Notes under the pieces: model-generated
Seen by the model: only the letters and a program-made list of their open reading frames with translations
The model's database searches: none
What the model was told of the DNA's origin: nothing
Position numbers and translations under genes: made by a program
Shown: positions 14,634 to 59,011 of the stretch, piece by piece
How the letters are laid out: each line of letters begins with the position of its first letter
How positions within the stretch are numbered: the stretch's first letter is position 1
Source: Sulfitobacter sp. SK011
GTDB lineage: Bacteria; Pseudomonadota; Alphaproteobacteria; Rhodobacterales; Rhodobacteraceae
Reading direction: 5' to 3'
NCBI RefSeq assembly: GCF_003352065.1
Contig: NZ_CP025803.1
Coordinates: 2,459,574-2,523,573 of the forward strand
DNA: 64,000 nt

Positions 14634-14657
14634 TGTACTGGATGGTTGGTTTATTTT

Positions 14658-40076: not shown

Positions 40077-40098
40077 TCCTCGAACTCCCCAGCCCCTG

Positions 40099-41999: not shown

Positions 42000-42057
42000 G
42001 GAATAATCTTACTAATTTCATGACGTTACAGCGTTAAATTTTTTTCCTTGCGAAAAT

Positions 42058-42069
42058 TGGAACGTTCCA
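42058..42069. promoter_or_regulatory. LacI-type operator, site 1
   Basis: TGGAACGTTCCA is a perfect 12-bp palindrome with central CG, typical of LacI-family operators. Identical copies occur at 42081-42092 and 54757-54768, all upstream of genes in the cluster that contains a LacI-family regulator gene. Confidence 0.8.
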
Positions 42070-42080
42070 GTAACAATTTA

Positions 42081-42092
42081 TGGAACGTTCCA
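42081..42092. promoter_or_regulatory. LacI-type operator, site 2
   Basis: The second TGGAACGTTCCA is 23 bases centre-to-centre from site 1, about two helical turns, so two repressor dimers could lie on the same face of the DNA. It overlaps an upstream in-frame ATG (42080), which argues that translation begins at 42131. Confidence 0.8.
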
Positions 42093-42130
42093 GCCCCTAC
42101 ATGCAGGGATTGGACACTCGGGGGGCTACA

Positions 42131-43702
42131 ATGAGTAAGATCGTTCCAGTCAGTGAGGCTGTCGGCCGTATTCCGGACGCCGCGATCTTGTCTGTTTCGT
42201 CGTCCTCGACCCTTGGATGCCCGGATGCTGTTCTAAAGGCAATCGGTGATCGGTTTGCGCACGAGGGACATCCGCGCGGCATTACATCTTTGCATCCAAT
42301 TGCGGCGGGCGACGTCTATGGCGTCAAAGGGATGGATCATATTGCAAAAGATGGCTTGCTGACCCGTGTTCTTGCCGGTTCGTATCCATCCGGCCCCTCA
42401 AGCGTTGAAATGCCGGAAATCTGGAAGATGATCGTCGATAACCGTGTCGCGGCATACAACGTTCCCTCGGGCATCATGTTTGATATGCACCGAGAGGCCG
42501 CAGCGCACCGTCCCGGCGTTCTGACCAAGGTCGGCCTGGACACCTTCGTAGATCCCAAAAGGCAAGGCTGCGCGATGAACGATCTGGGTGCTGCGGCACC
42601 GATCGTGTCCCGCACCGATTTCGCCGGTGAAACCTGGCTGCATTTTCCCAATGTCGTGCCGAACGTCGCGATTATCCGGGCCACCACAGCGGATGAACGG
42701 GGCAACCTGACCTATGAACATGAAGGCGCATATCTGGGCGGGCTGGAACAGGCGATCTGCGTGCGAAACAATGGCGGACTGGTCATCGCGCAGGTCAAAC
42801 GGGTGACCGCAGCAGGCAGCCTGCGCCCCCATGACGTGCGTGTGCCCGGACATCTGGTCGATTGCATTGTGGTCGATCCCGATCAAAAGCAGACCACGGA
42901 AACACAATATGACCCGGCAATATCTGGCGAAGTCATGCGCCCATGGGACAGTTTCGGTCTGCCAGAGCATGGGGTGGAAAAAGTCATCGCGCGCCGTGCC
43001 GCGCAAGAGTTGCGTCGCGGCATGACCGCCAATCTGGGCTTTGGCATCAGCGCAATGATCCCCCGCGTTCTATTGGAAGAAGGGCATCAAGACGCGGTGA
43101 CATGGGCGATTGAACAGGGTGCCGTCGGCGGCATACCCCTGACCGGCTTTGCGTTTGGCTGTGCGTCAAACGCCGACGCTTTCATGCCGTCCCCACAGCA
43201 GTTCATCTATTTCCAAGGCGCGGGATTCGACATCTCGTTCCTGTCATTCCTAGAGGTCGATACCCTTGGGAACGTCAACGTCTCAAAGCTTGGCAAAAAA
43301 CCTTATCTGACCGCTGGTTGTGGCGGGTTCGTGGACATTACTGCGCGCGCAAAAAACATCGTCTTCTCCGGCTGGTTCGAGGCCGGGGCCAAGATCAACC
43401 TGACGGGGAACGGCATCGACATCGCCGCTCCCGGCAAATTCACCAAAATGGTGGATGAGGTTGAGCATGTCACATTCTCGGGCCCTCGCGCAGTTGAGCA
43501 GGGGCAAAACGTGATCTACGTCACCGAGCGCTGCGTGATCCGATTGACGGAAAACGGCTTGGTGGCCACCGAAATCATGCCGGGCATTGATCCGCAAAAA
43601 CATATCGTGGGTCCATCCAAGGGCCGTGTCCAGGTGGCGGAAAACGCCACCACCATGCCCAAATCTCTCTTGGCCGAAGCGCCAATGGGCCTGACGCTGT
43701 GA
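42131..43702 (+). CDS. Fused alpha-beta acyl-CoA:acetate/3-keto-acid CoA-transferase
   Basis: 523 residues, a class I CoA-transferase with both subunits in one chain. The N-terminal half begins MSKIVPVSEAVGRIPDAAIL. The C-terminal half has GMTANLGFGISAMIPRVLLE and the catalytic motif WAIEQGAVGGIP, where the Glu forms the thioester. It transfers CoA to a carboxylic acid, here presumably the acid made by the neighbouring dehydrogenases. It is the first gene of the operon, with its start 38 bases after operator 2 and overlapping the next gene by four bases. Confidence 0.9.
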   Translation: MSKIVPVSEAVGRIPDAAILSVSSSSTLGCPDAVLKAIGDRFAHEGHPRGITSLHPIAAGDVYGVKGMDHIAKDGLLTRVLAGSYPSGPSSVEMPEIWKMIVDNRVAAYNVPSGIMFDMHREAAAHRPGVLTKVGLDTFVDPKRQGCAMNDLGAAAPIVSRTDFAGETWLHFPNVVPNVAIIRATTADERGNLTYEHEGAYLGGLEQAICVRNNGGLVIAQVKRVTAAGSLRPHDVRVPGHLVDCIVVDPDQKQTTETQYDPAISGEVMRPWDSFGLPEHGVEKVIARRAAQELRRGMTANLGFGISAMIPRVLLEEGHQDAVTWAIEQGAVGGIPLTGFAFGCASNADAFMPSPQQFIYFQGAGFDISFLSFLEVDTLGNVNVSKLGKKPYLTAGCGGFVDITARAKNIVFSGWFEAGAKINLTGNGIDIAAPGKFTKMVDEVEHVTFSGPRAVEQGQNVIYVTERCVIRLTENGLVATEIMPGIDPQKHIVGPSKGRVQVAENATTMPKSLLAEAPMGLTL

Positions 43703-44466
43703 GCACGGTGACCTGCACATACGACGACGGCGCTGCTGTCCTGACGCTGTGCAACCCGGCAAAGTTGAACGCGCTGACCACGGATATGCTGCACCAGCTT
43801 GAGGCGCATTTGACCGATCTTGACTGCAACAGCGACGTGCGCGCCGTCATCGTGACCGGTGAAGGGCCAAGGGCATTCTGTTGCGGTGCCGATATTGCCG
43901 AATGGGGGCCCCTCGCCCCGGCGGAGTTCGCCCGCAACTGGGTCCGCGACGGGCACCGGGTCTTTGATCGACTGGCCCGCTTGTCCAAGCCAACAATTGG
44001 CGCGCTGAACGGGCATGCCTTTGGCGGTGGACTGGAACTTGCCGCCTGTTGCGATATCCGCGTAATGGCCCCCCGCGCCACGCTTGCATTGCCAGAGGCA
44101 AAAGTCGGCATTGTGCCGGGCTGGTCCGGCACCCAACGGGTGGCGCGCTTGCTGCCGGAAGCTGTGGTCAAGGAAATGGCGCTCTTTGGTCGCCGCATCT
44201 CTGCTGAAAGGGCCTTTGCACTGGGGTTTGCCGCTGAGGTGGTTGAGGATCCCATGATCTGGGCCCAGGACATTGTCGCAACGCTCACCGACATATCCCC
44301 ACGCGCCAATGAAATTGCCAAAGCCATGATCCATGGTGCGGTGGGCGAAGATCGCGCCGCCGCGATTGAAATGCTGGGCAGTGCTGCTGCCGCCGCAAGC
44401 GCTGACCGCGACGAAGGCGTTCAAGCCTTCATCGAAAAGCGTTCCCCTAAATTCAACGGACAGTGA
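43699..44466 (+). CDS. Enoyl-CoA hydratase/isomerase family protein
   Basis: 255 residues with a GTG start overlapping the CoA-transferase stop. It has the crotonase oxyanion-hole blocks GPRAFCCGADIAEW and GHAFGGGLELAACCDIRVMA. LALPEAKVGIVPGWSGTQRV contains the first catalytic Glu region. It probably hydrates or isomerises the CoA thioester formed by the preceding enzyme. Coupled to its neighbours; the aldehyde dehydrogenase starts three bases after its stop. Confidence 0.9.
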   Translation: MSTVTCTYDDGAAVLTLCNPAKLNALTTDMLHQLEAHLTDLDCNSDVRAVIVTGEGPRAFCCGADIAEWGPLAPAEFARNWVRDGHRVFDRLARLSKPTIGALNGHAFGGGLELAACCDIRVMAPRATLALPEAKVGIVPGWSGTQRVARLLPEAVVKEMALFGRRISAERAFALGFAAEVVEDPMIWAQDIVATLTDISPRANEIAKAMIHGAVGEDRAAAIEMLGSAAAAASADRDEGVQAFIEKRSPKFNGQ

Positions 44467-44469
44467 CCC

Positions 44470-45990: not shown

Positions 45991-46031
45991 GACAGGCGTC
46001 AAAACACGAAACGCAATTATGGGAGGATACC

Positions 46032-47291
46032 ATGCGTTCATTCTTGAAAACGAAAACAGCGATTGCGCTCGCTTTGTCCGTCACCGCGGGCACTGCGGTT
46101 GCTGATAGCCACAGTGGTGTTGAAGTTCTGCACTGGTGGACATCCGGTGGTGAAGCGGCAGCACTCAATGTGTTGAAAGACGACCTCGAAAGCCAGGGCA
46201 TCGGCTGGACCGATATGCCCGTCGCCGGTGGCGGTGGTGAGCAGGCCATGACGGTTCTGCGCGCGCGCGTCACAGCGGGCAACGCGCCAACCGCCGTTCA
46301 AGGTCTCGGCTTTGACATCCTCGACTGGGCGAAACAGGGGTCGTTGGCGAACCTCAATGATGTGGCAGCGGCTGAAGGTTGGGACGATGTCGTGCCCGCA
46401 GCCTTGCAGCAATTTGCCAAAGTTGACGGCGCATGGGTTTCTGCACCTGTAAACGTTCACTCTACCAACTGGGTCTGGGCCAACAAGGCGGTTCTGGATG
46501 CCAATGGCATCGCGATGCCCGAAACATGGGAAGATTTCGTCGCGGCAATGGAGACTTTGTCCGCAGCGGGCATCACCCCGATTGCCCATGGCGGTCAGGC
46601 CTGGCAGGAAGCCACCGTTTTTGATGCGGTTGCCATGTCTGTACTTGGGCCAGACGGCTACAAGGCGGCGTTCATCGACCTTGATCCAGCGGTTCTGGGC
46701 GGTGACGGCATGAAAGAAGCCTTTGACCGCATGGCCGTGATCCGCGCCAATGTGGACGATAACTTTTCGGGCCGCGACTGGAACCTTGCAACAGCCATGG
46801 TCATCAATGGCGAAGCTGGTTTCCAGATGATGGGCGACTGGGCGAAGGGTGAATTCATCAACGCAGGCAAAGTCCCCGGCGAGGATTTCCTGTGTTTCCG
46901 CTTCCCCGGCACATCTGAACAGGTCACATTCAATGCCGACCAGTTCATGATGTTCGACCAAGGCGGTGACGTGTCCGCCGAGCAGGCCGCATTGGCAACA
47001 GCGATCCTGTCGCCGTCGTTCCAATCAGCCTTCAATGTGGTCAAAGGCTCCGTTCCTGCACGCACCGATGTGTCTAACGAGGCATTCGATGCCTGCGGTC
47101 AGAAAGGCATGGCGGACTTGGCTGCTGCTGCGGCAAGCAACAACCTTTTTGGGTCCATGGCACATGGGCACGCCAATGAGGCATCCGTCAAGAACGCGAT
47201 GTATGACGTGATCACCGCGCATTTTAACGGCGAGTACGACAGCGAAACGGCTGTCCAGGAACTCGTCGATGCGGTCGAAATCGCCAAGTAA
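46032..47291 (+). CDS. ABC transporter sugar-type substrate-binding protein
   Basis: 419 residues. A signal peptide ([20 protein letters not shown], cleaved near AVA-DSH) is followed by a family-1 solute-binding fold: [76 protein letters not shown]. It binds a carbohydrate-like substrate in the periplasm. ATG 46032 follows GGGAGGAT. It is followed by two permeases and an ATPase, with a strong stem-loop right after its stop, as is common for the abundant binding protein. Confidence 0.92.
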
Positions 47292-47303
47292 CCACCACGC
47301 GGG

Positions 47304-47328
47304 CGGGGCAGCAAAAATTGTTGCCCCG
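47304..47328 (+). promoter_or_regulatory. Intercistronic stem-loop between binding protein and permease genes
   Basis: CGGGGCAGCAA (47304-47314) pairs with TTGTTGCCCCG (47318-47328), 11 pairs with one G-U, and an AAA loop. It has no T-run, so it is probably a 3' stabiliser of the binding-protein mRNA or a partial attenuator that gives higher expression of the binding protein than of the permeases. Confidence 0.65.
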
Positions 47329-47370
47329 TCCCTACCCTGCCCCGTCACATGAGCACAAGGAGGCTACTTT

Positions 47371-48264
47371 ATGCCCCTGTCCGCCAACGCAGACTTTAAA
47401 ACACGGTTTCAGCATTGGTTGCCAAAGCTGGTACTGTCGCCATCCTTGGCGATGGTGTTGGTGTTCGTCTACGGGTTCATTCTGTTCTCGGTGTATCTGT
47501 CCTTTACCGACAGCCGGTTGCTGCCGTCATTCGGTTGGGTGGGCTGGGAAAATTACTCAAAGCTTTGGCGTCTGAGCCACTGGGAAACATCGATCACCAA
47601 TATGGGCATTTTCGCCGCCCTCTATATCGGGATCTGCACAGTTCTGGGTCTTGGCCTCGCCATCTTCCTTGATCAGAAAATTCGCGGCGAAGGCATGATC
47701 CGCACAATCTATCTCTATCCGATGGCGCTCAGTTTCATCGTGACAGGCACCGCCTGGAAGTGGTTCCTTGATCCCGGGATCGGTCTTGAAAATGTCATGC
47801 AAAGCTGGGGTTGGACCAGTTTCGAATTCGACTGGATCAAGAACCGCGACTTTGCGATCTATACCGTTGTCCTGGCGGCGGTCTGGCAGACCAGCGGGTT
47901 TGTCATGGCAATGTTCCTGGCCGGGCTGCGCGGCATCGACAACGAAATCCTCAAGGCCGCCCAGATGGACGGCGCGTCCAACTGGAACCTGTATCGACGG
48001 ATCATCATTCCGCAATTGCGCCCTGCATTTCTGTCGGCTTTCGTGATCCTGAGCCATCTGGCGATCAAGACCTTCGATCTGGTCATCGCGCTGACCGGAG
48101 GGGGACCGGGCCGGGCCACGGAACTGCCTGCGACGTTCATGTATTCCTACACGTTCTCGCGCAACCAGATGGGCATTGGCGCGGCGTCGGCCACGATCAT
48201 GTTGATGACGATTGCGGCGATCATGATCCCCTACCTTTATGCTGAACTGCGGGAGAAGAACTGA
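47371..48264 (+). CDS. ABC transporter permease, MalF type
   Basis: 297 residues, six membrane helices. The EAA loop that docks on the ATPase reads LKAAQMDGASNWNLYRRIII followed by PQLRPAFLSAF. FILFSVYLSFTDSRLLPSFG is the first helix. The start follows AAGGAGG. It overlaps the next permease by one base. Confidence 0.92.
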   Translation: MPLSANADFKTRFQHWLPKLVLSPSLAMVLVFVYGFILFSVYLSFTDSRLLPSFGWVGWENYSKLWRLSHWETSITNMGIFAALYIGICTVLGLGLAIFLDQKIRGEGMIRTIYLYPMALSFIVTGTAWKWFLDPGIGLENVMQSWGWTSFEFDWIKNRDFAIYTVVLAAVWQTSGFVMAMFLAGLRGIDNEILKAAQMDGASNWNLYRRIIIPQLRPAFLSAFVILSHLAIKTFDLVIALTGGGPGRATELPATFMYSYTFSRNQMGIGAASATIMLMTIAAIMIPYLYAELREKN

Positions 48265-49145
48265 TGTCAGTCGCGTCTCAAGATACCGCCATCCGCACGG
48301 GCCGCGTCATGCGCACATTGATCTATCTTGTGCTGCTGCTGTTCGCCCTGTTCTACATGCTGCCGCTCTACGTCATGGTCATCAATTCGGTCAAACCACT
48401 GGACGAGATCACTGGCGGCGGCATGATGAACCTGCCGCAGGTCTTTACGCTTGAACCTTGGGCCAAGGCCTGGTCCTCGGCCCAGATTGGTGTTCAGCCA
48501 ACGGGCCTGTCGCCCTACTTCTGGAATTCGATCAAGATGGTCGTGCCCGCCGTGGCCATTTCGACCGTGCTTGGTGCGCTCAACGGGTATGTGCTGACCA
48601 AATGGCGGTTCAAATACGACACCATCCTGTTCGGGCTGATATTGTTTGCCTGCTTTATCCCGTTTCAGATCGTTCTCATCCCCATGGCAAAGATGCTGGG
48701 GTTGATGGGGCTTGCCGGAACAACCTGGGGTCTGGTGCTTGTGCATGTGGTCTACGGGATCGGCTTCACGACGCTTTATTTCCGCAACTACTATGCCGTC
48801 TTCCCGACAGAGCTGATCCGCGCGGCGCAAATTGATGGTGCCGGTTTCTTTCAGATATTCTGGCGCATCCTGCTACCGTCCTCTGGGCCGATCGCCGTTG
48901 TTTCGGTCATCTGGCAGTTCACCAACATCTGGAACGACTTCCTGTTCGGTGCCTCTTTTGCGGGTGCCGACAGCCAGCCCATGACGGTTGCGCTCAATAA
49001 TCTGGTGCAGGCCAGCCACGGCGTGAAGGAATACAATGTCCATTTCGCCGGTGCCATCCTTGCCGCACTTCCAACACTTCTCGTCTACATCGTCGCGGGC
49101 CGCTATTTCGTGCGCGGTCTGATGGCGGGTTCAGTCAAAGGATAA
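48264..49145 (+). CDS. ABC transporter permease, MalG type
   Basis: 293 residues with six membrane helices. Its EAA loop reads LIRAAQIDGAGFFQIFWRIL followed by LPSSGP. FYMLPLYVMVINSVKPLDEI is the typical MalG start. It forms the transmembrane channel together with the preceding permease. The ATPase gene starts 5 bases after its stop. Confidence 0.92.
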   Translation: MSVASQDTAIRTGRVMRTLIYLVLLLFALFYMLPLYVMVINSVKPLDEITGGGMMNLPQVFTLEPWAKAWSSAQIGVQPTGLSPYFWNSIKMVVPAVAISTVLGALNGYVLTKWRFKYDTILFGLILFACFIPFQIVLIPMAKMLGLMGLAGTTWGLVLVHVVYGIGFTTLYFRNYYAVFPTELIRAAQIDGAGFFQIFWRILLPSSGPIAVVSVIWQFTNIWNDFLFGASFAGADSQPMTVALNNLVQASHGVKEYNVHFAGAILAALPTLLVYIVAGRYFVRGLMAGSVKG

Positions 49146-49150
49146 GACCG

Positions 49151-50263
49151 ATGGGCTTTCTTGATATCGACAACACAACCAAAGCTTACGGATCAGTCGA
49201 GGTTCTGCACAACGTCGACATATCGGTGCAGGAAGGTGAATTCCTTGTGCTTGTTGGCCCGTCCGGATGTGGCAAATCCACCCTGTTGAACATGATTGCG
49301 GGCCTTGAGGAAATCACCAGCGGTGAGATACGCATCAAGGACAATCTGATGAACGGGGTGCATCCGTCCAAGCGCAATATCGCGATGGTGTTCCAGTCCT
49401 ACGCGCTCTACCCCAACATGACCGTGGGCCAGAACATTACCTTTGGGCTTGAAATGCATGGTGTGCCCAAGGCGGAACGGGAAAAGGCCATGAAAGAAGC
49501 GGCCAGCCTGTTACAAATCGAGGCCTTGCTGGACCGTAAACCCGGTGCCTTATCGGGCGGACAGCGTCAGCGGGTGGCGATGGGCCGCGCCCTGGTGCGC
49601 AACCCGGATGTGTTTTTGTTTGACGAACCGCTGTCGAACCTCGACGCCAAGCTGCGCGTGGATATGCGCACCGAGATCAAGAAACTGCACCAGAAACTGG
49701 GCACCACCATCGTCTATGTCACCCATGACCAGATCGAAGCCATGACCCTGTCAACGCGCATTGCCGTGATGAACGGCGGCTATGTCCAGCAGCTTGGAAC
49801 CCCCCAGGAAATTTACGACACACCCGCGAATATTTTTGTCGCAACCTTCATGGGATCGCCCGCGATGAATGTGGTGCAAGCCAAAGTCGCGATGGAAAAC
49901 GGCCGCCCGGTGGCGCAGGTGGCCCTTCATGACGGGGCGCTGGTGGCGCTGCCCTTCAGTCAGGATAATATGGCGGATTGGGCGGGCAAGGACATCTTGC
50001 TCGGCGTCCGCCCCGAGACGATCACCGATGAAGACGCCGCAGACCGCAAGTCGTCCAACATCGCCCGGATGACCAACCGGATTGTGGTCACCGAACCGGC
50101 GGGTTCAGATACTTTCGTGACGATGACACTTGGCGGCAAGGACGTGATCGCGCGCATGCGTTCTGACGCGGATGTGCGTCCGGGCGCGGACTTTGATTTT
50201 GCTGTGAACATGGAAAAGGCTGTTGCCTTTGATCCCAAGACCGAGAACCGGATCGCGCCCTGA
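49151..50263 (+). CDS. ABC transporter ATP-binding protein, MalK/UgpC type
   Basis: 370 residues. Walker A is GPSGCGKSTLLNM, the Q-loop region VFQSYALYPNMTV, the signature LSGGQRQRVAMGRALVRNP, Walker B VFLFDEPLSNLDAKLR, and the switch VYVTHDQIEAMTLS. A C-terminal OB/TOBE domain (about 235-370) may sense regulators. It powers the importer. Its stop overlaps the next gene's ATG (TGATG-type). Confidence 0.94.
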   Translation: MGFLDIDNTTKAYGSVEVLHNVDISVQEGEFLVLVGPSGCGKSTLLNMIAGLEEITSGEIRIKDNLMNGVHPSKRNIAMVFQSYALYPNMTVGQNITFGLEMHGVPKAEREKAMKEAASLLQIEALLDRKPGALSGGQRQRVAMGRALVRNPDVFLFDEPLSNLDAKLRVDMRTEIKKLHQKLGTTIVYVTHDQIEAMTLSTRIAVMNGGYVQQLGTPQEIYDTPANIFVATFMGSPAMNVVQAKVAMENGRPVAQVALHDGALVALPFSQDNMADWAGKDILLGVRPETITDEDAADRKSSNIARMTNRIVVTEPAGSDTFVTMTLGGKDVIARMRSDADVRPGADFDFAVNMEKAVAFDPKTENRIAP

Positions 50264-51756
50264 TGCAGCCCGATCTCGTCATCATCGGCTCTGGCATGGG
50301 CGGGGCGACCTTGGCGGCGGCACTGGCCCCCACAGGGCGGCGGATCCTGATTCTTGAACGCGGAGAGCACCTGCGCCCGTCGCCGCAAGATCGCGACGCG
50401 GCTGCGATTTTTGGCGAAGGTACCTTCCGCAGTGATGAGGATTGGCTTGACGGCACGAACACGCCTTTCAATCCGGGGAACTTTTACAACGTAGGTGGCA
50501 ATTCGAAATTTTACGGCGCGGCGCTGATCCGGTACCGCGAAACCGACTTTGCCCCGGTGCACCATAGGGGGGGGCAAACGCCGGGCTGGCCAATCTCTTA
50601 TGATGATCTTGAACGCGATTATCAGGCGGCAGAGCAGCTTTATGCCGTACGCGGAACCCAAAGCGAAGACCCGACCGAGCCCCCGCATTCCGGCGGTTAT
50701 CCCCATGCTCCTATTCCCGACGAAGCTGACATCGTGGACTTGCGCGCGCGATTGAAGGCCGCGGGCCTGCACCCCTCTTCCATTCCTCTGGGCGTCGATC
50801 TGGCAGAATGGCTCGCTGCGGGGCAGACAACCTGGGATGGCTATCCCAACACGTGCGGTGCCAAGATGGATGCAGAAACCTGCGGGTTGAAAGCCGCATT
50901 GGCCCATCCGAATGTTGAACTGCGCACGGGATGTCGTGTGACAGCGCTTCAAACCGGGACCGATGATCAGATTGCGAGCATTGTCGTAGAGTGCGGCGGC
51001 AGTTCAGAGACGATCAAAACCCCGATCGTCGTCGTCGCCGCTGGCGCGGTGCAAACCGCAGCACTTTTGCTGGCCTCTGCCAACGACAATTGGCACACCG
51101 GGCTGGCCAACCGCTCTGATCAGGTCGGGCGCAACTTCATGAACCATAATTGCTCGGCCCTGTTGGCCTTGCATCCCCTGCGCCGCAATCGTGCAGTGTA
51201 TCAAAAGACCCTGATGCTGAACGATTTTTACCTCGCCTCTGATGGTGCACCCCCTTTGGGCAATGTGCAGATGCTGGGCAAGATCACCGGACCAATCCTT
51301 GCCGCCAATTCAAAGCTTCCCGCATGGCTGGCGGGCTGGATCGCCGCACGCAGCTTTGATTTCTACGCCATGTCCGAAGACCTGCCCAACCCGGACAGCA
51401 GAGTGGCGTTGAAGGCCGGGCAAATCAAACTCGACTGGCAGCGGTCCAATTTGGATGCGCATGAAATGCTGGTGGCCAGGCTGAAACGCGTCTTGCGCCG
51501 CGCGGGGTTCCCGGTTGTTCTGTCGCAATCGTTTGATCGGCGCACCCCGTCGCACCAATGCGGCACGGCACGGATGGGGGCAGACCCGAAATCAAGCGTT
51601 GTTGACACATTCTGCCGCAGCCACGACCACAGAAACCTGTTTATCGTTGACGCCTCTGTTCTGCCCACGTCGGCCGCCGTAAACCCGGCCCTCACGATCG
51701 CTGCTCTCGCACTTCGCGCCGGTCGCCACATCGCGGAAACGGAGTTTGCCGCATGA
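50263..51756 (+). CDS. GMC-family FAD oxidoreductase (first of a tandem pair)
   Basis: 497 residues. The FAD motif is DLVIIGSGMGGATLAAALAP at the N-terminus; GGNSKFYGAALIRYRETDF and the C-terminal CGTARMGADPKSSVVDTFCR plus VDASVLPTSAAVNPALTIAA are GMC_oxred_C features. It is closer to the gluconate/glucoside-type dehydrogenase branch than to choline dehydrogenase. It oxidises an alcohol or ring hydroxyl of the imported compound. It overlaps the following GMC gene by four bases. Confidence 0.88.
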   Translation: MQPDLVIIGSGMGGATLAAALAPTGRRILILERGEHLRPSPQDRDAAAIFGEGTFRSDEDWLDGTNTPFNPGNFYNVGGNSKFYGAALIRYRETDFAPVHHRGGQTPGWPISYDDLERDYQAAEQLYAVRGTQSEDPTEPPHSGGYPHAPIPDEADIVDLRARLKAAGLHPSSIPLGVDLAEWLAAGQTTWDGYPNTCGAKMDAETCGLKAALAHPNVELRTGCRVTALQTGTDDQIASIVVECGGSSETIKTPIVVVAAGAVQTAALLLASANDNWHTGLANRSDQVGRNFMNHNCSALLALHPLRRNRAVYQKTLMLNDFYLASDGAPPLGNVQMLGKITGPILAANSKLPAWLAGWIAARSFDFYAMSEDLPNPDSRVALKAGQIKLDWQRSNLDAHEMLVARLKRVLRRAGFPVVLSQSFDRRTPSHQCGTARMGADPKSSVVDTFCRSHDHRNLFIVDASVLPTSAAVNPALTIAALALRAGRHIAETEFAA

Positions 51757-53348
51757 CCGTCGAGGGCTACGATTTCATCGTCATCGGTGGCGGGTCCGCA
51801 GGCTCGGTCATTGCGGCGCGCCTGTCAGAAAGCGCACAGGCGCGCGTTCTGCTGCTCGAGGCCGGCGGCAGCGACTGGCACCCGTTTTTTCATCTGCCCG
51901 CTGGCTTTGCCAAAATGACCAAGGGCATCGGCGCATGGGGTTGGTCAACCGTCCCGCAAAGGTCAATGCAAGACAAGGTGTTCAACTACACCCAAGCCAA
52001 GGTGATCGGCGGCGGCTCTGCCATCAATGCGCAGATATACACGAGGGGTGCCGCGCAGGATTATGACGAATGGCGGCAAATGGGGTGTGAAGGCTGGGCA
52101 TACGACGACGTCCTGCCCTATTTCAGGAAATCCGAAGACAACGATACCTACAGCGGCGAATATCATGGCAAAGGCGGCCCCATGGGCGTGTCAATGCCAG
52201 CGGCCCCCTTGCCGATCTGCGATGCGTTCATCGATGCCGCAGGACAGATCGGCATTCCAAAGACAACGGATGTAAACGGCCCAAGGCAGGACGGTGCGGG
52301 ATACTACCAGCTTACCCAACGCAATGCGCGCAGATCGTCCGCGGCGATGGCTTTTCTGGCACCCGCAAAATCCCGCCCGAACCTGACCGTCAAGACAAAC
52401 GCGCAAGTGCGCCGGATCACGGTTGAAAATGGTCGCGCGACAGGCATTGAGATGGCCGACGGCACCCGCATTACGGCTGACCAGGAGGTGATCTTGTCCT
52501 CCGGTGCCATCGGTTCACCGCGTCTGCTGCAACTTTCCGGCATCGGGCCAGCGGATCATTTGTCATCGCTTGGCATCGATGTGGTTTTTGACCAACCGGG
52601 CGTGGGGTCGAACCTTCAGGATCACCTCGACCTCTATGCAATCTGTGAAGTCACCGGTCCGCACACCTATGACCGCTTCGCCAAATTGCATCTGTCTGCG
52701 TATGCCGGGTTGCAGTATCTTTTCACCCGCAAGGGTCCGGTCGCATCCAGTTTGTTTGAAACCGGCGGGTTCTGGTATGCCGATGAAAACGCCCGTTCCC
52801 CCGATATCCAGATGCATCTGGGCCTTGGCACCGGGATCGAGGCCGGAGTCGAGGTCATGCGCAATGGCGGGGTGACGCTCAATGCCTGCCACCTGCGCCC
52901 GCGATCCCGGGGCACCGTCCGCCTGCAAAGCGACAACCCGGCTGATATGCCGCTGATTGATCCCAACTATCTCTCAGACCCCTATGATCGCGAGATGTCG
53001 ATCCGTGGCCTGAAGCTGGTGCAGCAAATTTTGGCCCAGGATGCGCTCAAACCCTACATCATGGCCGAACGCCTGCCCGGCCCGGATGTGCGCACCGATG
53101 AGGATTATTTCAACTTCATCTGCGTGCATTCCAAGACCTCGCACCACTGCGCGGGCACCTGCCGGATGGGCAGCGACGCCGATGCCGTGCTTGACCCGCG
53201 CCTGAGATTCAATGGGATCGATGGGCTGCGGGTCGCAGATGCATCAGTGATGCCGACCGTCAATTCATCCAACACCAACGCCCCTGCCATCATGATCGGT
53301 GAAAAAGCCGCCGATATGATCAAGCAAGATCAAGGAATGACACAATGA
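51753..53348 (+). CDS. GMC-family FAD oxidoreductase, choline-dehydrogenase-like
   Basis: 531 residues. FIVIGGGSAGSVIAARLSES is the FAD-binding motif, VIGGGSAINAQIYTRGAAQD the GMC signature 1, and SSGAIGSPRLLQLSGIGPAD the GMC signature 2. The active-site His is in SKTSHHCAGTCRMG, and the Asn partner is in VNSSNTNAPAIMIGEKAA. It oxidises a primary or secondary alcohol to the aldehyde or ketone. Sequence differs clearly from the adjacent GMC gene, so the two probably act on different positions or steps. It overlaps the Dabb gene by four bases. Confidence 0.92.
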   Translation: MTVEGYDFIVIGGGSAGSVIAARLSESAQARVLLLEAGGSDWHPFFHLPAGFAKMTKGIGAWGWSTVPQRSMQDKVFNYTQAKVIGGGSAINAQIYTRGAAQDYDEWRQMGCEGWAYDDVLPYFRKSEDNDTYSGEYHGKGGPMGVSMPAAPLPICDAFIDAAGQIGIPKTTDVNGPRQDGAGYYQLTQRNARRSSAAMAFLAPAKSRPNLTVKTNAQVRRITVENGRATGIEMADGTRITADQEVILSSGAIGSPRLLQLSGIGPADHLSSLGIDVVFDQPGVGSNLQDHLDLYAICEVTGPHTYDRFAKLHLSAYAGLQYLFTRKGPVASSLFETGGFWYADENARSPDIQMHLGLGTGIEAGVEVMRNGGVTLNACHLRPRSRGTVRLQSDNPADMPLIDPNYLSDPYDREMSIRGLKLVQQILAQDALKPYIMAERLPGPDVRTDEDYFNFICVHSKTSHHCAGTCRMGSDADAVLDPRLRFNGIDGLRVADASVMPTVNSSNTNAPAIMIGEKAADMIKQDQGMTQ

Positions 53349-53653
53349 TCCGCCATATCGTGCTGACCAAATTCAAGCCTGACACCACCGAGGATGAAAT
53401 CGCCGGAATTTACGCGGGCCTGTCCGCCTTGGCCGAAAAACTTCCCGGTGCCCAAAACTTCACCGGCGGGCGTTCTGAAAGCCCCGAACAGATCGAACGC
53501 GGCTACATGCACGGCTTTGTCATCGACTTTGACAACTGGGCAGCGCTGCAAAACTACGCGAATGACCCGGAACACCAGGCACTGGGTGGCCAACTTGTCG
53601 CCAATGCCACAGGCGGGATCGACGGCATTCTTGTGCTTGATCTGGACGTCTGA
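53345..53653 (+). CDS. Dabb family (stress-responsive A/B barrel) protein
   Basis: 102 residues, a small dimeric alpha/beta barrel. It begins MIRHIVLTKFKPDTTEDEIA and has GYMHGFVIDFDNWAALQNYA and NDPEHQALGGQL, typical of the family. In catabolic clusters Dabb proteins act as small isomerases or cyclases or protect labile intermediates; here the role is open. Coupled to the upstream GMC gene. Confidence 0.88.
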   Translation: MIRHIVLTKFKPDTTEDEIAGIYAGLSALAEKLPGAQNFTGGRSESPEQIERGYMHGFVIDFDNWAALQNYANDPEHQALGGQLVANATGGIDGILVLDLDV

Positions 53654-53671
53654 TGAGGATCACGGAAACCA

Positions 53672-54706: not shown

Positions 54707-54756
54707 CCAAACGTCGCACAACCGGGCCAAATCCCCACTTGTGCGCCGATAAATGA

Positions 54757-54768
54757 TGGAACGTTCCA
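54757..54768. promoter_or_regulatory. LacI-type operator, site 3
   Basis: The third TGGAACGTTCCA lies 29 bases before the Gfo/Idh/MocA start and 51 bases after the LacI stop. It indicates a second regulated promoter inside the cluster. Confidence 0.8.
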
Positions 54769-54796
54769 GCCTGGAACAAACGAAAGGAAGACGGAC

Positions 54797-55960
54797 ATGA
54801 CTGAGGTAAAAGTTGCCGTTTTGGGTGCATCAGGTTGGATGGGCAAGGTCCACACCATGGCCTATCAGACCTTTCCGCATTTCTTCGGGGAAAGCGGCGG
54901 TACGGCGCGGGTTGTCGCACTGGTCGGCGGAAAATCATCGACGCCGCAAGACCTTGCCTTTCGCGCACCGGGTGCAAAAATTCTGACCAACTGGCAAGAG
55001 GCTGTGGCCGATCCTGATGTGGACCTGATTGATATCTGCCTGCCCGACAATCTGCACTACGACGTCGCAAAGGCGGCGTTGCTGGCCGGAAAACATGTCT
55101 TTTGCGAAAAGCCCCTGGCCGATACGGCCGCACAGGCGCAGGAACTTGCCGACATCGCCAAAGCCAAGGGGCTGATCACCCGCGTGGGCCATGCATTTCC
55201 CCGCAACCCCGTGCACGACCGCGCGAAAGAGATCATCGAGGCAGGCGAAATCGGTGAAATCAAGCTCTTCAAGGGCTGCCAGCATGTCGACATGTATGGC
55301 GACCCCCTCGCACCCTATATGTGGCGCGCGAACGGCGATCTGGCCCCGACGGGGATCGTCGGCGACACCGGCAGCCATGTCTTTAGCTTCATGGAGTTTT
55401 TGGTCGGCAAGGTCAGCGCGTTGATTGCCGACAACTTCATTATAACCGCCAAAAGGCCGGTCGTCGAAGGTGTCGGGCTGGGTGCCGAAACGGCGCTTTC
55501 AGGTGATGAAGACTGGGCAGACATCACCAATCCCGATGGATCCAACATCCTGTGCACCTTTGCCAATGGCGCACGCGGTCTGGTCGATTTCAGCCGCATC
55601 GCCACGGGTCGCAAATTCATGCAGACCTATGAAATATACGGCACCAAGGGCAGTCTGGCCTACACCTATGACGAGGTGAACCGCCTGCGGTTCTATTCGA
55701 ACGACGACAAGGTCGGGCGGCGCGGCTACCGCGAAATCGACGTCGGACCAGAACATGAAACCTACAAAGCCTTCCTGCCGCTGCCCAATTTTGCGCTTGG
55801 CTATAACGAAAGCAAGATCATTGAGGCGGCCGAAGTCATTCAATCCATCGTTGCCAACAAGCCCATGTGGCCGACCTTTGAGACGGGCCACCACATCTGC
55901 CAGATTGTCGATGCCTGTATGGAATCATCGCGCCTGAGACGCTGGGTCGACATTCCGTGA
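54797..55960 (+). CDS. Gfo/Idh/MocA-family NAD(P) oxidoreductase
   Basis: 387 residues. The Rossmann motif is KVAVLGASGWMGKVHTMAYQ; DLIDICLPDNLHYDVAKAAL and HVFCEKPLADTAAQAQELAD contain the conserved EKP with the catalytic Lys. The C-terminal alpha/beta domain includes GDTGSHVFSFMEFLVGKVSA, with the His expected in the active site. Members oxidise ring hydroxyls of sugars, inositols and anhydrosugars. It is the first gene of the second transcription unit, 31 bases before the FAD oxidoreductase. Confidence 0.92.
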   Translation: MTEVKVAVLGASGWMGKVHTMAYQTFPHFFGESGGTARVVALVGGKSSTPQDLAFRAPGAKILTNWQEAVADPDVDLIDICLPDNLHYDVAKAALLAGKHVFCEKPLADTAAQAQELADIAKAKGLITRVGHAFPRNPVHDRAKEIIEAGEIGEIKLFKGCQHVDMYGDPLAPYMWRANGDLAPTGIVGDTGSHVFSFMEFLVGKVSALIADNFIITAKRPVVEGVGLGAETALSGDEDWADITNPDGSNILCTFANGARGLVDFSRIATGRKFMQTYEIYGTKGSLAYTYDEVNRLRFYSNDDKVGRRGYREIDVGPEHETYKAFLPLPNFALGYNESKIIEAAEVIQSIVANKPMWPTFETGHHICQIVDACMESSRLRRWVDIP

Positions 55961-55991
55961 CCTGCTGCCCAATCAAAAAGAAGGTCGCGAG

Positions 55992-58085
55992 ATGAGCCTG
56001 TCCGTCCCTCAACATATCCTTGATGCGCTGACCGACGTCGCGATGCCGCGCCTCGGCAACGCCCCTGACACGGGCGAACGGATGACCGTGGATGGCTTCG
56101 ACGTCCCTGTGTTTCGCGCCGGAAGCCTCGTGATCGGAAGCGGTGCCGCCGGACTGCGTGCCGCCGTCGAGATGAAGCGCCGCGCCGTTGATGTAACTAT
56201 CATCAGTCAAAGTGCATGGGGCGGCACGTCCGCCTGTTCGGGGTCGGACAAACAAACGCTGCACACCGCCAACACCAAGGATCAGGGTGACAACTTTCAG
56301 GATATGGCCGCCGCGATCCGGTCGGGCGGTGCCATGGACGAAGACACCGCCTATATCGAGGCCATTGGCTCAATCCGGGCGATGGCGTCGCTGCAGTATC
56401 TGGGTCTGCCGTTACCACAGGATGAACTGGGCGGCACGTTGCGATATCAGACCGACCATGATGAGGTTGGCCGCGCGACATCCTGCGGACCACGCACGTC
56501 GCGCCTGATGGTCAAGGTTCTGGCCGAGGAAGCGCTGCGTCTCGGCATTCCATTTTACAACCATACGACCGCCGTGAAGGTTTTGACCAAGCAAGAAGGT
56601 GATCAGTTGCGCGTCATCGGCGTGCTGACCATCCGGCCCAAAACAAGCACCGACGCAAATCCCTACGGTCTGGCGCTGTTCCAATGCGAGGCTCTTGTCT
56701 TTGCCGCAGGGGGCCCCGGCGAGATGTACCGCGACAGCGTATTCCCCAACGGCTGCTTTGGCACGCTTGGGCTGGCGCTGGAAACGGGGCTCGCGCTGGT
56801 GAACATCACCGAAAGCCAGTTCGGCATCGGCACCCGTCGCGAAGGGTTCCCCTGGAACCTGTCAGGCACCTATGTGCAGGTGATCCCGCATATCTATTCC
56901 CTTGATGCGGATGGCCAAGAGCATCATTTTCTGGCCGACTATTATCGCACCACCCAAGAAATGGCCTCGAACATCTTTCGCAAAGGCTATCAATGGCCAT
57001 TCCATGCCAGCCGGATGCTGAACTTCGAATCCAGCCTTGTGGATCTGGCGATCTACCGCGAGGGCCAGAAAGGGCGGCGGGTCTTTCTTGACTTCAACCG
57101 CAACCTTTTGCCGGTGCCCGGTGATCAGGACTTCAGCCTGGATCGGCTCGACCCTGACGTAGGGGATTACCTCAAACGGTCGGGAGCCAATCAAGACCTG
57201 CCCATTGATCGTCTGCGCCATATGAACCCGCTCGCGATCGAACTTTATAAACGCTACAAGGTGGATATCACTGCCGATCCGCTGGAGTTTGCCGTCAACC
57301 ACCAGCATATGAACGGCGGCATCGCCGTCGATACCTGGGGGCGGACCAACATCGCTGGCATCTATGCGGTGGGCGAGGCCGCAGGCACCCATGGCGCAAC
57401 ACGCCCCGGCGGGTCTGCATTGAATGCAGGTCAGGTCTTTGGCACACGGGTTGCCGAACACATCGCGGCCAGTGGTCGCGCAGCGGCACCCGCAAATTCG
57501 GATGCACGCCCACAAACCGGTGATGCTGTTGCAGCTATCCTCGCCGTCCTGAACGCTGACAGCCCCTATGCCGTGGCAGACGTGCGCCGCGAAATTCAGG
57601 CCCGAATGAGCGATCACGCAGGTATCCTGTGCCACGCCATAGACGTTGAACGTGCGCATCAAGACGCCCGCAAGCTTAGTCAGGCGGTTCGTGAAAACGG
57701 GCTTTCATTTACCCGCAACAACGAAGCCGCCCGCGTCGTGCAATGGCAGCAGATGGCCCTCGCGTCAGAGGCGGTGCTTGCCGCGCTTGATTTCTATATC
57801 GCCCAAGGCGGCGGCAGCCGTGGCGCACGCGCAATCTGTGACCCAGATGGCGCATCCCTGCCGAGATCGAGGACCGGACCGCTGCCAGAGGTGAGATTCC
57901 GCCCGGAACGCGCAGATGACATGCAATCGCAAATTCTTGTGCGGCTGGTTGGCAATGACATGGCCGTCACCACCCGCCCCATCCGCACTTTCGACACACA
58001 GGCCAAATCGGTATTTGAACGCGACTGGCCCGCCTGGCTGACAGGCGGAATCTTTGACCTCGCTGATGAAACCGGCACAACGTGA
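55992..58085 (+). CDS. Large FAD-dependent oxidoreductase, fumarate-reductase/SdhA-like
   Basis: 697 residues. The FAD motif LVIGSGAAGLRAAVEMKRRA is at about 37-56. WGGTSACSGSDKQTLHTANT follows, then the substrate-site block HQHMNGGIAVDTWGRTNIAG and the flavin-contact region YAVGEAAGTHGATRPGGSAL. The C-terminal helical domain (about 515-650) resembles the flavoprotein C-terminal domain. It could oxidise or reduce a double bond or alpha-keto/enol intermediate. No partner iron-sulfur subunit is nearby, unlike true fumarate reductases. It overlaps the kinase start by one base. Confidence 0.85.
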   Translation: MSLSVPQHILDALTDVAMPRLGNAPDTGERMTVDGFDVPVFRAGSLVIGSGAAGLRAAVEMKRRAVDVTIISQSAWGGTSACSGSDKQTLHTANTKDQGDNFQDMAAAIRSGGAMDEDTAYIEAIGSIRAMASLQYLGLPLPQDELGGTLRYQTDHDEVGRATSCGPRTSRLMVKVLAEEALRLGIPFYNHTTAVKVLTKQEGDQLRVIGVLTIRPKTSTDANPYGLALFQCEALVFAAGGPGEMYRDSVFPNGCFGTLGLALETGLALVNITESQFGIGTRREGFPWNLSGTYVQVIPHIYSLDADGQEHHFLADYYRTTQEMASNIFRKGYQWPFHASRMLNFESSLVDLAIYREGQKGRRVFLDFNRNLLPVPGDQDFSLDRLDPDVGDYLKRSGANQDLPIDRLRHMNPLAIELYKRYKVDITADPLEFAVNHQHMNGGIAVDTWGRTNIAGIYAVGEAAGTHGATRPGGSALNAGQVFGTRVAEHIAASGRAAAPANSDARPQTGDAVAAILAVLNADSPYAVADVRREIQARMSDHAGILCHAIDVERAHQDARKLSQAVRENGLSFTRNNEAARVVQWQQMALASEAVLAALDFYIAQGGGSRGARAICDPDGASLPRSRTGPLPEVRFRPERADDMQSQILVRLVGNDMAVTTRPIRTFDTQAKSVFERDWPAWLTGGIFDLADETGTT

Positions 58086-59011
58086 TGGATTTCATGTCCA
58101 GCAAAGTGGTCGCAATCGGTGAGGCCATGATTGAAATGGCCGTGATCGGCGATGATACCTATCGGCGCAGCTTTGCGGGCGACACCTTCAATACGGCCTG
58201 GCATATGGCCCAAATTCTGGGCACCGGCGGACAAGTTGGCTTTGTCACAAAGGTAGGCAGGGATTCGGTTTCGGACACCTTCATCGACCAACTCACAGAC
58301 GACGGCATGGATGTTTCCTGCATTGGCCGCGTCGATGACCGCACCATGGGCCTCTATATGATCGCCCTGAAGGGGGTTGAACGAGATTTCCAGTATTGGC
58401 GATCACACTCCGCCGCGCGGCTATTGGCGGACAACCCAGACTGGCTGACCAAGGCAATCGGTCAGGCGGGCCTCATTCACCTTTCAGGCATTACCCTCGC
58501 GATCCTGTCGGCTGATGCGCGCGCGCGCCTCTGGGATGTGATCGCCACGGCCCGCTCGCAAGGCGCGCGCCTGTCTTTCGACCCGAACGTGCGCCCCAGG
58601 CTGTGGTCGTCACAAGACGAGACCCGCACAACCCTGTCTGCCTTTCTTGAGATCACTGACATCGCCCTGCCCAGTTTTGACGATGAGGCGGCCTTGTGGG
58701 GCGACACATCCCCACAGGCGACACTTGAGCGGCTGCAAAAAGCCGGCGTTACAGAAATTGCGGTCAAGGACGGTGCCGGTCCGGTTCTGGGCTTGTGTGA
58801 CGGTACACAAACGACGGTTGAAACCCCTTCCGTCAGCGGCATGCGTGATACCACAGGCGCAGGCGATGCCTTCAACGCAGGCTATCTGGCGGCGCGCCTA
58901 TCCGGGCACCCTCAGCAGGACGCAATTGCGTTCGGCCAGGCAGTATCGTCAGAAGTTCTTCGGCATTTCGGGGCCCGAATTCCAAAGGAACATATCCCCA
59001 ATCTGATCTGA
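58085..59011 (+). CDS. PfkB-family sugar kinase, 2-keto-3-deoxygluconate-kinase-like
   Basis: 308 residues from ATG 58085 (an ATG at 58094, MSSKVVAIGEAMIEM, is also possible). VVAIGEAMIEMAVIGDDTYR is the KdgK-like start; SFAGDTFNTAWHMAQILG is the substrate-binding block; RLSFDPNVRPRLW and the anion hole/base motif DTTGAGDAFNAGYLAARL complete the PfkB set. It phosphorylates a sugar or keto-deoxy sugar acid with ATP. It is the last gene of the regulon. Confidence 0.9.
   Translation: MDFMSSKVVAIGEAMIEMAVIGDDTYRRSFAGDTFNTAWHMAQILGTGGQVGFVTKVGRDSVSDTFIDQLTDDGMDVSCIGRVDDRTMGLYMIALKGVERDFQYWRSHSAARLLADNPDWLTKAIGQAGLIHLSGITLAILSADARARLWDVIATARSQGARLSFDPNVRPRLWSSQDETRTTLSAFLEITDIALPSFDDEAALWGDTSPQATLERLQKAGVTEIAVKDGAGPVLGLCDGTQTTVETPSVSGMRDTTGAGDAFNAGYLAARLSGHPQQDAIAFGQAVSSEVLRHFGARIPKEHIPNLI

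What the first reader, a model, noticed from the sequence alone, without database searches (positions are those of the whole stretch)
42058..59011. LacI-controlled regulon of unassigned substrate with three identical operators
Seen: the palindrome TGGAACGTTCCA occurs at 42058, 42081 and 54757, each just upstream of the first gene of a plus-strand block, and a LacI-family gene lies between. Established: LacI regulators usually bind 12-20 bp palindromes with central CG near their own clusters. Inference: this is a self-contained pathway in which a sugar-type ABC importer brings in a compound, two GMC enzymes, a Gfo/Idh/MocA enzyme and an ALDH oxidise it, a CoA-transferase and crotonase process the acid, and a PfkB kinase handles a sugar or keto-deoxy acid. 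The combination of tandem GMC enzymes, Dabb, an SdhA-like flavoprotein without partner subunits, and a CoA-transferase does not match any pathway I recognise.
Basis: partly seen in the sequence, partly recalled or inferred. Interest (0 to 1): 0.8.

Follow-up and report, generated by a model that had tools for sequence, protein, structure and literature searches.

The report
LacI-repressed sugar regulon, pathway unknown
One repressor with three identical DNA switches appears to control a conserved set of bacterial genes that probably takes in a glucose-like sugar and breaks it down by an unfamiliar oxidative route, and relatives of its signature enzyme occur in many other bacteria, including more than half of complete E. 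coli genomes.

Summary
Observation confirmed. TGGAACGTTCCA occurs 3 times in the window and nowhere else in the 4.19-Mb genome. In a family sample, 11 of 13 genomes holding the cluster's flavoprotein have the exact site, against 19 of 136 without it; two or more copies in 8 of 13 against 3 of 136. In 24 of 24 distinct double sites in the fetched DNA, operator 1 fills a -35/-10 spacer and operator 2 follows: promoter occlusion by a LacI repressor.

The importer is glucose/galactose-type (65% identity to a glucose-bound structure). The route probably ends in a 2-keto-3-deoxy sugar acid: PfkB is KDG-kinase-like, and 5 of 25 PfkB-bearing records have a KDPG aldolase next to it. CoA-transferase and crotonase (catalytic Glu pair kept) may act as a CoA-dependent sugar-acid dehydratase; this is inference. 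The solitary SdhA-like flavoprotein belongs to a widespread family whose function I found no account of; 3106 of 5426 complete E. coli genomes have a match. The true substrate remains unknown.

The parts
41613..41999 (+). VOC protein of the YaeR / glyoxalase-I-like family, just upstream of the operators; probably not in the LacI operon
   Evidence: NF050075 185.7 bits, over cut-off 140; neighbour also in L037, L040, L044 and L150
42048..42076 (+). inferred promoter TTGCGA-17-TAACAA with operator 1 in its spacer
   Evidence: same layout in 24 of 24 distinct double sites in the fetched DNA. The strict consensus scan did not call it
42058..42069 (.). operator O1, TGGAACGTTCCA
42081..42092 (.). 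operator O2, TGGAACGTTCCA, 23 bp from O1
42131..43702 (+). acyl-CoA transferase (YdiF/FadX-like; family I by recall)
   Evidence: PF01144; 332 bits to YdiF 2ahu
43699..44466 (+). crotonase / enoyl-CoA hydratase with E113 and E133 kept
   Evidence: PF00378; best solved relative 3-hydroxypropionyl-CoA dehydratase 5zai, 163.7 bits
44470..45990 (+). aldehyde dehydrogenase (BADH/HpaE-like)
   Evidence: PF00171 548 bits; below the cut-offs of all 25 NCBIfam families shown
46029..47291 (+). periplasmic glucose/galactose-type binding protein
   Evidence: 65% identity to 4r2b (bound glucose), TM 0.90 by query and 0.95 by target
47371..48264 (+). ABC permease 1
   Evidence: PF00528; best NCBIfam GlcT, below cut-off
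48264..49145 (+). ABC permease 2
   Evidence: PF00528; best NCBIfam GlcU, below cut-off
49151..50263 (+). ABC ATPase (MalK/UgpC type)
   Evidence: NF008653 456 bits, over cut-off 432
50263..51756 (+). GMC1: oxidoreductase nearest among solved structures to FAD glucose dehydrogenase and fructose dehydrogenase large subunits
   Evidence: 141 bits to 6a2u
51753..53348 (+). GMC2: choline-dehydrogenase-like GMC enzyme
   Evidence: PRK02106 568 bits, cut-off 605
53345..53653 (+). Dabb A/B-barrel protein
   Evidence: PF07876
53672..54706 (+). LacI-family repressor, last gene of the first block
   Evidence: PF00356, PF13377
54757..54768 (.). operator O3, TGGAACGTTCCA, before the second block
   Evidence: kept in 5 of 20 records with LacI directly before Gfo (window, L037, L039, L052, L058), absent at up to one mismatch in the other 15
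54797..55960 (+). Gfo/Idh/MocA dehydrogenase, levoglucosan / scyllo-inositol dehydrogenase-like
   Evidence: NF052479 290 bits, cut-off 650; 6a3f 236 bits; 5ya8 179 bits
55992..58085 (+). solitary SdhA/FrdA/NadB-fold flavoprotein, signature enzyme
   Evidence: Foldseek to FrdA 5vpn: TM 0.66 by query, 0.79 by target, 19% identity; PF00890
58082..59011 (+). PfkB kinase, KDG-kinase-like
   Evidence: NF052444 261 bits, cut-off 400; 4e69 233 bits

Best explanation
A LacI-repressed catabolic regulon for a glucose- or galactose-like monosaccharide or cyclic polyol. SHOWN by sequence: one repressor gene and three identical operators unique in the genome; two sit in a promoter-like sequence before the first block (spacer and start site), one 28 nt before the second block, so the likely mode is steric repression relieved by a small ligand. 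INFERRED: the ABC system imports the compound unphosphorylated; the flavin and NAD enzymes (GMC1, GMC2, ALDH, Gfo/Idh/MocA, SdhA-like flavoprotein) oxidise it to a polyhydroxy acid of the right stereochemistry; CoA-transferase and crotonase together dehydrate that acid through its CoA thioester, CoA passing from product to next substrate (as CaiB/CaiD do with carnitine, recalled); the 2-keto-3-deoxy acid formed is phosphorylated by PfkB and split by a KDPG-type aldolase to pyruvate and a triose phosphate. The regulatory part I hold at about 0.93, the 2-keto-3-deoxy endpoint at about 0.65, the CoA-dependent dehydratase at about 0.35.
For: Regulation. Importer. Endpoint: PfkB is KDG-kinase-like; a KDPG aldolase (PF01081 by Pfam in L041, by similarity to it in the others) is next to PfkB in 5 of the 25 PfkB-bearing records (L041, L055, L069, L086, L099); the window's genome has two PF01081 genes elsewhere; the flavoprotein-less G013 version has DUF993 (aldolase-like by recall) and an FAA hydrolase, and in G077 a site pair in promoter layout points at a run of GMC1, Dabb, DUF993 and a MOFRL (glycerate-kinase-type, recalled) gene. 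Dehydratase slot: CoA-transferase and crotonase are kept where the flavoprotein is missing (G013); the crotonase keeps both catalytic Glu in 7 of 7 aligned sequences; the Firmicute relative L051 with an IlvD-type dehydratase shows no CoA-transferase or crotonase match at E 1e-10.
Against: PfkB is missing from some clusters (none found in L037/L038 of G086, or in L040 of G001, where the contig ends 1.5 kb beyond the flavoprotein). The PfkB scores below the curated KDG-kinase cut-off (261 of 400). 20 of 25 PfkB records show no KDPG aldolase in the stretch held, the window included. Rhizobium has a fructose-bisphosphate aldolase, not KDPG aldolase, after the kinase. Five redox enzymes are more than a plain aldose needs, and I cannot give each a step. 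In enteric relatives with SDR, Gfo, PF01261 protein and flavoprotein there is no CoA-transferase/crotonase match (L106, L111, L113, L114). IlvD absence from the relatives was tested with one query only. O3 is not kept in 15 of 20 records with the same LacI-Gfo order. No binding, expression or growth data exist here.
Confidence: 0.42

Rival explanations
1. Anhydrosugar or 3-keto-sugar pathway: Gfo oxidises C3 of a levoglucosan- or 1,5-anhydroglucitol-like substrate; where C1 has no leaving group the flavoprotein desaturates C1-C2 next to the ketone, and hydration and reduction give glucose.
For: Gfo is nearest to levoglucosan dehydrogenase and scyllo-inositol/L-glucose dehydrogenase; E. coli and enteric relatives of the flavoprotein sit with a PF01261 protein, the family of LgdB1, and SDR or Gfo (PMC10066097 and PMC7676230, passages); the importer is glucose-type. 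PMC12441222 (section 22) treats an aerobic enzyme for 1,5-anhydroglucitol as still to be identified.
Against: Gfo is far below the LGDH cut-off (290 of 650); no PF01261 gene is in the window cluster; the E. coli PF01261 protein has no match in this genome at E 0.001 (which warns that an empty answer without a positive control shows little); CoA-transferase, crotonase and ALDH have no role.
Confidence: 0.2
2. Cyclitol pathway: Gfo makes an inosose, the flavoprotein acts next to the ketone, ring opening gives a keto-aldonate that is turned into KDG.
For: Gfo similarity to scyllo-inositol dehydrogenase (178.7 bits); scyllo-inositol resembles glucose, which the binding protein type takes.
Against: No IolB, IolD or IolE family among the window genes scanned; GMC2 plus ALDH need a primary alcohol that inositols lack.
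Confidence: 0.12
3. Glycoside with a small alcohol or acid part: the sugar part goes to KDG, while GMC2, ALDH, CoA-transferase and crotonase degrade a C3-type acid (3-hydroxypropionate or acrylate-like) from the other part.
For: Crotonase is nearest among solved structures to 3-hydroxypropionyl-CoA dehydratase; the CoA-transferase is YdiF-like, a short-chain type by recall; GMC2 plus ALDH fits an alcohol-to-acid route.
Against: The binding protein is of a monosaccharide type; no glycoside hydrolase or lyase family among the cluster genes; E. coli has CoA-transferase and crotonase without GMC2 and ALDH in its operon.
Confidence: 0.15
4. Ordinary hexose oxidation (De Ley-Doudoroff type) of glucose or galactose, the extra genes being accessory.
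For: Glucose-type importer, GMC1 nearest to FAD glucose dehydrogenase, KDG-kinase-like PfkB, KDPG aldolase in the genome.
Against: No standard sugar-acid dehydratase family among the window cluster genes; conserved, co-regulated extra redox genes would be unexplained.
Confidence: 0.11

Closest known systems
LacI-family local catabolic repressors
   Same: LacI HTH plus ligand-binding domain, short palindrome with central CG, sites before the neighbouring transport and enzyme genes, regulator inside the controlled block
   Different: Target pathway and ligand unknown; two operators built into one promoter-like sequence (spacer and start site) in 24 of 24 distinct double sites read
Semi-phosphorylating Entner-Doudoroff / De Ley-Doudoroff and the L-glucose route of Paracoccus (recalled)
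   Same: Unphosphorylated sugar import, oxidation, KDG-type kinase, KDPG aldolase
   Different: No IlvD/EDD- or enolase-type dehydratase among the window cluster genes; CoA-transferase and crotonase instead; five redox enzymes
Levoglucosan pathway LgdA-B1-B2-C (PMC7676230, PMC10066097, passages seen)
   Same: LgdA-like Gfo protein, sugar ABC importer
   Different: No LgdB1-type PF01261 protein in the cluster; Gfo far below the family cut-off
Complex II flavoprotein subunits and L-aspartate oxidase
   Same: Whole fold, FAD motif, an Arg (R471) aligned with the substrate-site Arg of FrdA (role recalled)
   Different: Solitary gene; the FrdA active-site His aligns with Gln (Q438); 17-19% identity among the best 10 hits
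CaiB/CaiD carnitine dehydration (recalled)
   Same: CoA-transferase plus crotonase working as a hydroxy-acid dehydratase with CoA recycling
   Different: CaiB is a family III transferase; here the transferase is YdiF-like and the proposed substrate a sugar acid

Membership tests
LacI-family regulon | LacI HTH and periplasmic-binding-like domain | tested here: met
   PF00356 49.3 bits, PF13377 98.2 bits, both over cut-off
LacI-family regulon | Palindrome specific to the target promoters and conserved with the regulon | tested here: met
   3 of 3 genome copies at the cluster; of 27 exact copies in the 13 flavoprotein genomes of the sample, 26 lie before cluster genes and the 27th 0.46 kb before GMC1. 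Two of the 13 have no exact copy
LacI-family regulon | Regulator binds the site and a ligand releases it | not testable with these tools
   needs gel shift / footprint and ligand screen
Semi-phosphorylating ED pathway | Sugar-acid dehydratase (IlvD/EDD or enolase superfamily) in the cluster | tested here: not met
   no such Pfam/NCBIfam family among the window cluster genes
Semi-phosphorylating ED pathway | KDG kinase | tested here: inconclusive
   best family is KdgK but 261 bits against a cut-off of 400
Semi-phosphorylating ED pathway | KDPG aldolase | tested here: met
   two PF01081 genes in the genome, outside the window; next to PfkB in 5 relatives
Levoglucosan (Lgd) pathway | LgdA over the curated cut-off | tested here: not met
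   290 of 650 bits
Levoglucosan (Lgd) pathway | LgdB-type PF01261 protein | tested here: not met
   no PF01261 among the window cluster genes
Complex II (SdhA/FrdA) | Fold of the flavoprotein subunit | tested here: met
   TM 0.66 by query, 0.79 by target to 5vpn
Complex II (SdhA/FrdA) | Iron-sulfur and membrane partner subunits beside it | tested here: not met
   none among the window genes scanned
Complex II (SdhA/FrdA) | Both active-site carboxylate clamps | tested here: inconclusive
   Arg kept (R471), His to Gln (Q438) in the HMMER alignment; the second clamp lies just beyond the aligned stretch; residue roles recalled
myo-inositol (Iol) pathway | IolE, IolD, IolB in the cluster | tested here: not met
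   no such family among the window cluster genes

The most novel reading that the evidence does not exclude
A sugar-acid catabolic route in which a CoA-transferase and a crotonase replace the metal-dependent sugar-acid dehydratase (CoA-thioester dehydration with CoA recycling), fed by a so far uncharacterised solitary complex-II-like flavoprotein that acts on a polyhydroxy carboxylate; the same flavoprotein module, with TRAP or acid-type MFS transporters, is a common unexplained catabolic locus of E. coli and other enterics.
Probability: 0.28. Interest if true: 0.75.

Novelty: new variant of a known kind. Interest (0 to 1): 0.55.

Why it matters
It gives a directly testable regulon (12-bp operator, one repressor, two blocks) for a catabolic pathway with no clear counterpart, shared by marine-type Rhodobacteraceae and, in gene content, by plant-associated Rhizobium. 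Its signature flavoprotein family is widespread (at least 563 related stretches in species-level genomes), and 3106 of 5426 complete E. coli genomes have a match; in the annotated E. coli records I opened it lies in an operon for which I found no described function, so solving one member would annotate a common variable locus of a model species. If the CoA-transferase/crotonase pair proves to be a dehydratase, it would be a chemically distinct way to make 2-keto-3-deoxy sugar acids.

Tried and rejected
Considered and rejected or lowered: (1) palindrome as chance or a common repeat: rejected. (2) One-mismatch sites elsewhere in the window's genome as further regulon members: rejected, 7 against 7 in the control. 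(3) A strict sigma-70 scan found no promoter at 41950-42200; the TTG-17-TA layout was seen only by comparing double sites. A first script searched too narrow a range and missed it. One search took 13 exact pairs that I had picked, leaving out two exact pairs of L097; one search took every pair in the fetched DNA (15 distinct exact pairs, 9 more with one mismatch in one or both copies) and found the layout in 24 of 24, each in one orientation. These sites are partly related by descent, so the binomial tail printed (6.7e-28) is not a true probability. (4) Plain levoglucosan, myo-inositol or complex II membership: defining features not met. (5) beta-oxidation of an aglycone: no thiolase family among the window cluster genes. 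(6) Quinate/shikimate or aromatic acid as substrate, suggested by aromatic-acid or galactonate-type MFS genes in three relatives: hard to reconcile with a glucose-type importer and KDPG aldolase; left open for the enteric version. (7) Firmicute neighbours beyond L051 could not be sampled. (8) A phylum-wide search with the E. coli flavoprotein matched 4 of 299 genomes at E 1e-60, own genome included; little new context.

Literature: ten searches of the open-access library, of which 23, 37, 38, 41, 71 and 108 looked for this gene combination or the E. coli locus. 23, 37 and 41 listed nothing; 38, 71 and 108 listed 1, 4 and 11 papers, none of which describes it by title and start of abstract. This covers open-access PMC only. 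Papers: PMC7676230, PMC10066097 and PMC9007349 as passages; PMC12441222 as passages and its section 22. From recall only: CaiB/CaiD, the Paracoccus L-glucose route, active-site roles in FrdA/SdhA and crotonase, DUF993 as aldolase-like, MOFRL as glycerate kinase, the family I type of YdiF.


Full report
Observation. The palindrome TGGAACGTTCCA is present three times in the window at the stated places and has no fourth exact copy in the 4,190,786-base genome. At one mismatch there are seven more places, equal to the reversed-pattern control. O2 ends 38 nt before the CoA-transferase ATG (42131) and O3 28 nt before the Gfo/Idh/MocA ATG (54797); a LacI-family gene (PF00356, PF13377) lies between.

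Gene content. Pfam and NCBIfam scans give, in order: VOC (41613), [O1, O2], CoA-transferase, crotonase, ALDH, binding protein, two permeases, ATPase, GMC1, GMC2, Dabb, LacI, [O3], Gfo/Idh/MocA, SdhA-like flavoprotein, PfkB. No sugar-acid dehydratase, thiolase, glycoside hydrolase, PF01261 protein or complex II partner family was found among these genes.

Conservation. In a sample of 149 genomes of the family, 13 (own included) hold a full-length flavoprotein (66-80% identity in the 12 others); the sampled genome of the same genus (G055) does not, so the cluster is accessory. The cluster gene order is kept in several of them. Most of the set is in Rhizobium sp. CCGE531 (44-79% identity); the 26-kb stretch read there holds no LacI match and no site at up to one mismatch, but it begins inside the CoA-transferase gene, so the region before that gene was not seen. 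In these 80, GMC2 is near the flavoprotein in 49, GMC1 in 48, ATPase in 43, Gfo in 38 and directly upstream of it on the same strand in 37; CoA-transferase, crotonase and ALDH (13, 12, 23) are undercounted because loci reach at most 10 kb to either side.

Regulon test. Exact copies of the palindrome were counted in the same 149 genomes: 11 of 13 flavoprotein genomes have one or more, 19 of 136 others do (Fisher 2.4e-7); two or more copies in 8 of 13 against 3 of 136 (3.9e-8). The two flavoprotein genomes without an exact site are G057 and G104; G104 has one-mismatch sites before Gfo and CoA-transferase (L050), G057 none in the 20 kb read (L047). Of 27 exact copies in flavoprotein genomes, 26 lie before cluster genes; the last (G077) is 0.46 kb before the GMC1 match of a GMC1-Dabb-DUF993-MOFRL run, as part of a pair in promoter layout pointing at that run, though an ORF overlaps it. 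Among the 19 other genomes I read sites in three: G013 has a pair before a second-type Gfo gene, CoA-transferase, crotonase, ALDH, ABC, GMC1, SDR, GMC2, DUF993, LacI, Dabb and FAA hydrolase, without the flavoprotein; the two sites of G030 and one of eight in G067 lie near no cluster gene (a 29% ALDH match is the only one). The sites of the other 16 genomes were not read.

Results against a simple picture. O3 is kept in only 5 of 20 records in which LacI directly precedes Gfo; the other 15 have no site there at up to one mismatch, so in them the second block probably rides on the first promoter. In L097 (Pontivivens insulae) four exact sites form two pairs that are not before a recognised cluster gene, although one pair points, 0.4 kb away, at a second binding-protein gene.

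Promoter layout. In the fetched DNA there are 15 distinct exact double sites (18-35 bp apart) and 9 more with one mismatch in one or both copies. In 24 of 24 a TTGNNN hexamer starts 9-11 nt before the first copy and a TANNNN hexamer follows at a spacing of 16-18, in one orientation only; so operator 1 fills the spacer and operator 2 lies just downstream. This is the layout of a repressor that blocks RNA polymerase. Standard consensus scanning does not call the window promoter, and many sites are related by descent, so the count is not 24 independent trials.

Substrate clues. The binding protein's nearest solved structures are glucose/galactose binders: 4r2b with bound glucose (65% identity, TM 0.90 by query, 0.95 by target), SAR11_0769, P. 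putida ppGBP and Thermus GBP. GMC1 is nearest to FAD glucose dehydrogenase; Gfo to levoglucosan dehydrogenase (NCBIfam family) and, among solved structures, to 6a3f, other uncharacterised dehydrogenases and scyllo-inositol/L-glucose dehydrogenase. So the compound is probably a hexopyranose or something shaped like one.

Endpoint clues. PfkB is nearest to KDG kinases but below the curated cut-off. This genome has two PF01081 genes elsewhere. The G013 and G077 variants carry DUF993, an FAA hydrolase and a MOFRL kinase, other ways to finish 2-keto-3-deoxy acids (recalled). Against this, PfkB is not in every cluster, 20 of the 25 PfkB records show no KDPG aldolase in the stretch held, and Rhizobium has a fructose-bisphosphate aldolase there.

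Dehydratase idea. CoA-transferase and crotonase occupy the place where a sugar-acid dehydratase would be needed. The crotonase keeps both catalytic Glu (E113, E133; roles recalled) in 7 of 7 aligned relatives, and its best solved relative is a 3-hydroxypropionyl-CoA dehydratase. The Firmicute L051 locus has an IlvD-type protein and showed no CoA-transferase or crotonase match at E 1e-10. This is inference; no enzyme was assayed, and enteric loci without CoA-transferase and crotonase (L106, L111, L113, L114) show no IlvD match either.

The flavoprotein. Its model (pLDDT 80, pTM 0.85; residues 80-100 and 132-165 poor) matches complex II flavoproteins along nearly its whole length (FrdA 5vpn: TM 0.66 by query, 0.79 by target). 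R471, aligned with an Arg of FrdA that I recall as the substrate Arg, is invariant in 34 of 34 sequences, as is Q438, which aligns with the FrdA active-site His. Relatives sit with acid transporters: TRAP in E. coli, aromatic-acid- or galactonate-type MFS in L113, L115 and L125 (all below cut-offs). I infer that it acts on a polyhydroxy carboxylate. In E. coli the 54-55% identical protein is encoded between ytfB and rplI with TetR, SDR, PF01261, crotonase, CoA-transferase and TRAP genes in the records opened (in CP054241 the TRAP genes are not in the table), and 3106 of 5426 complete genomes have a DNA match to the gene, 3103 over at least 80% of it.

Verdict. The regulon is well supported by sequence. 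The pathway is probably a new variant of oxidative sugar catabolism whose substrate I cannot name.

Noticed in passing
L034:5143-14926; L138 (E. coli, between ytfB and rplI): Operon TetR-SDR-PF01261-crotonase-CoA-transferase-flavoprotein-TRAP; the flavoprotein gene has a match in 3106 of 5426 complete E. coli genomes; no described function found in the searches named.
   Followed up: partly
L106, L111, L113, L114: Enteric version TetR-SDR-Gfo-PF01261-flavoprotein, in L113 with an acid-type MFS gene, without CoA-transferase/crotonase matches.
   Followed up: partly
L051:192-13941 (Subdoligranulum): Distant flavoprotein (36-39% identity) beside IlvD-type, OYE-like, Zn-alcohol dehydrogenase, SDR and LacI genes.
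   Followed up: partly
window 41613-41999: YaeR-type VOC protein just upstream of the operators, also a neighbour in L037, L040, L044 and L150; role unknown.
   Followed up: no
L041, L043, L060, L061, L069, L102: A binding-protein gene between ATPase and permease genes (48-51% identical to the window's where printed: L041, L043, L069); L041 and L043 also have a first copy in the usual place.
   Followed up: no
L097:13576, 13597, 16126, 16148: Four exact operators in Pontivivens insulae, two pairs in promoter layout, not before a recognised cluster gene; a second binding-protein gene (14371-15684, minus) lies between the pairs.
   Followed up: partly
window 39096-40127, minus strand: IS481/IS3-type transposase about 2 kb upstream of the cluster, which the sampled same-genus genome lacks.
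   Followed up: no
window 5640-8015, minus strand: D5_N/DUF5906/PriCT_2 primase-like protein, a hint of a mobile element.
   Followed up: no
window 21729-24962: FecR-domain protein beside a CHASE2 adenylate/guanylate cyclase.
   Followed up: no
crotonase, window 43699-44466: Trp at positions 69, 81 and 142 is invariant in 7 of 7 aligned relatives; in the two solved relatives aligned position 142 is Tyr or Phe. Perhaps for a sugar-like substrate.
   Followed up: no
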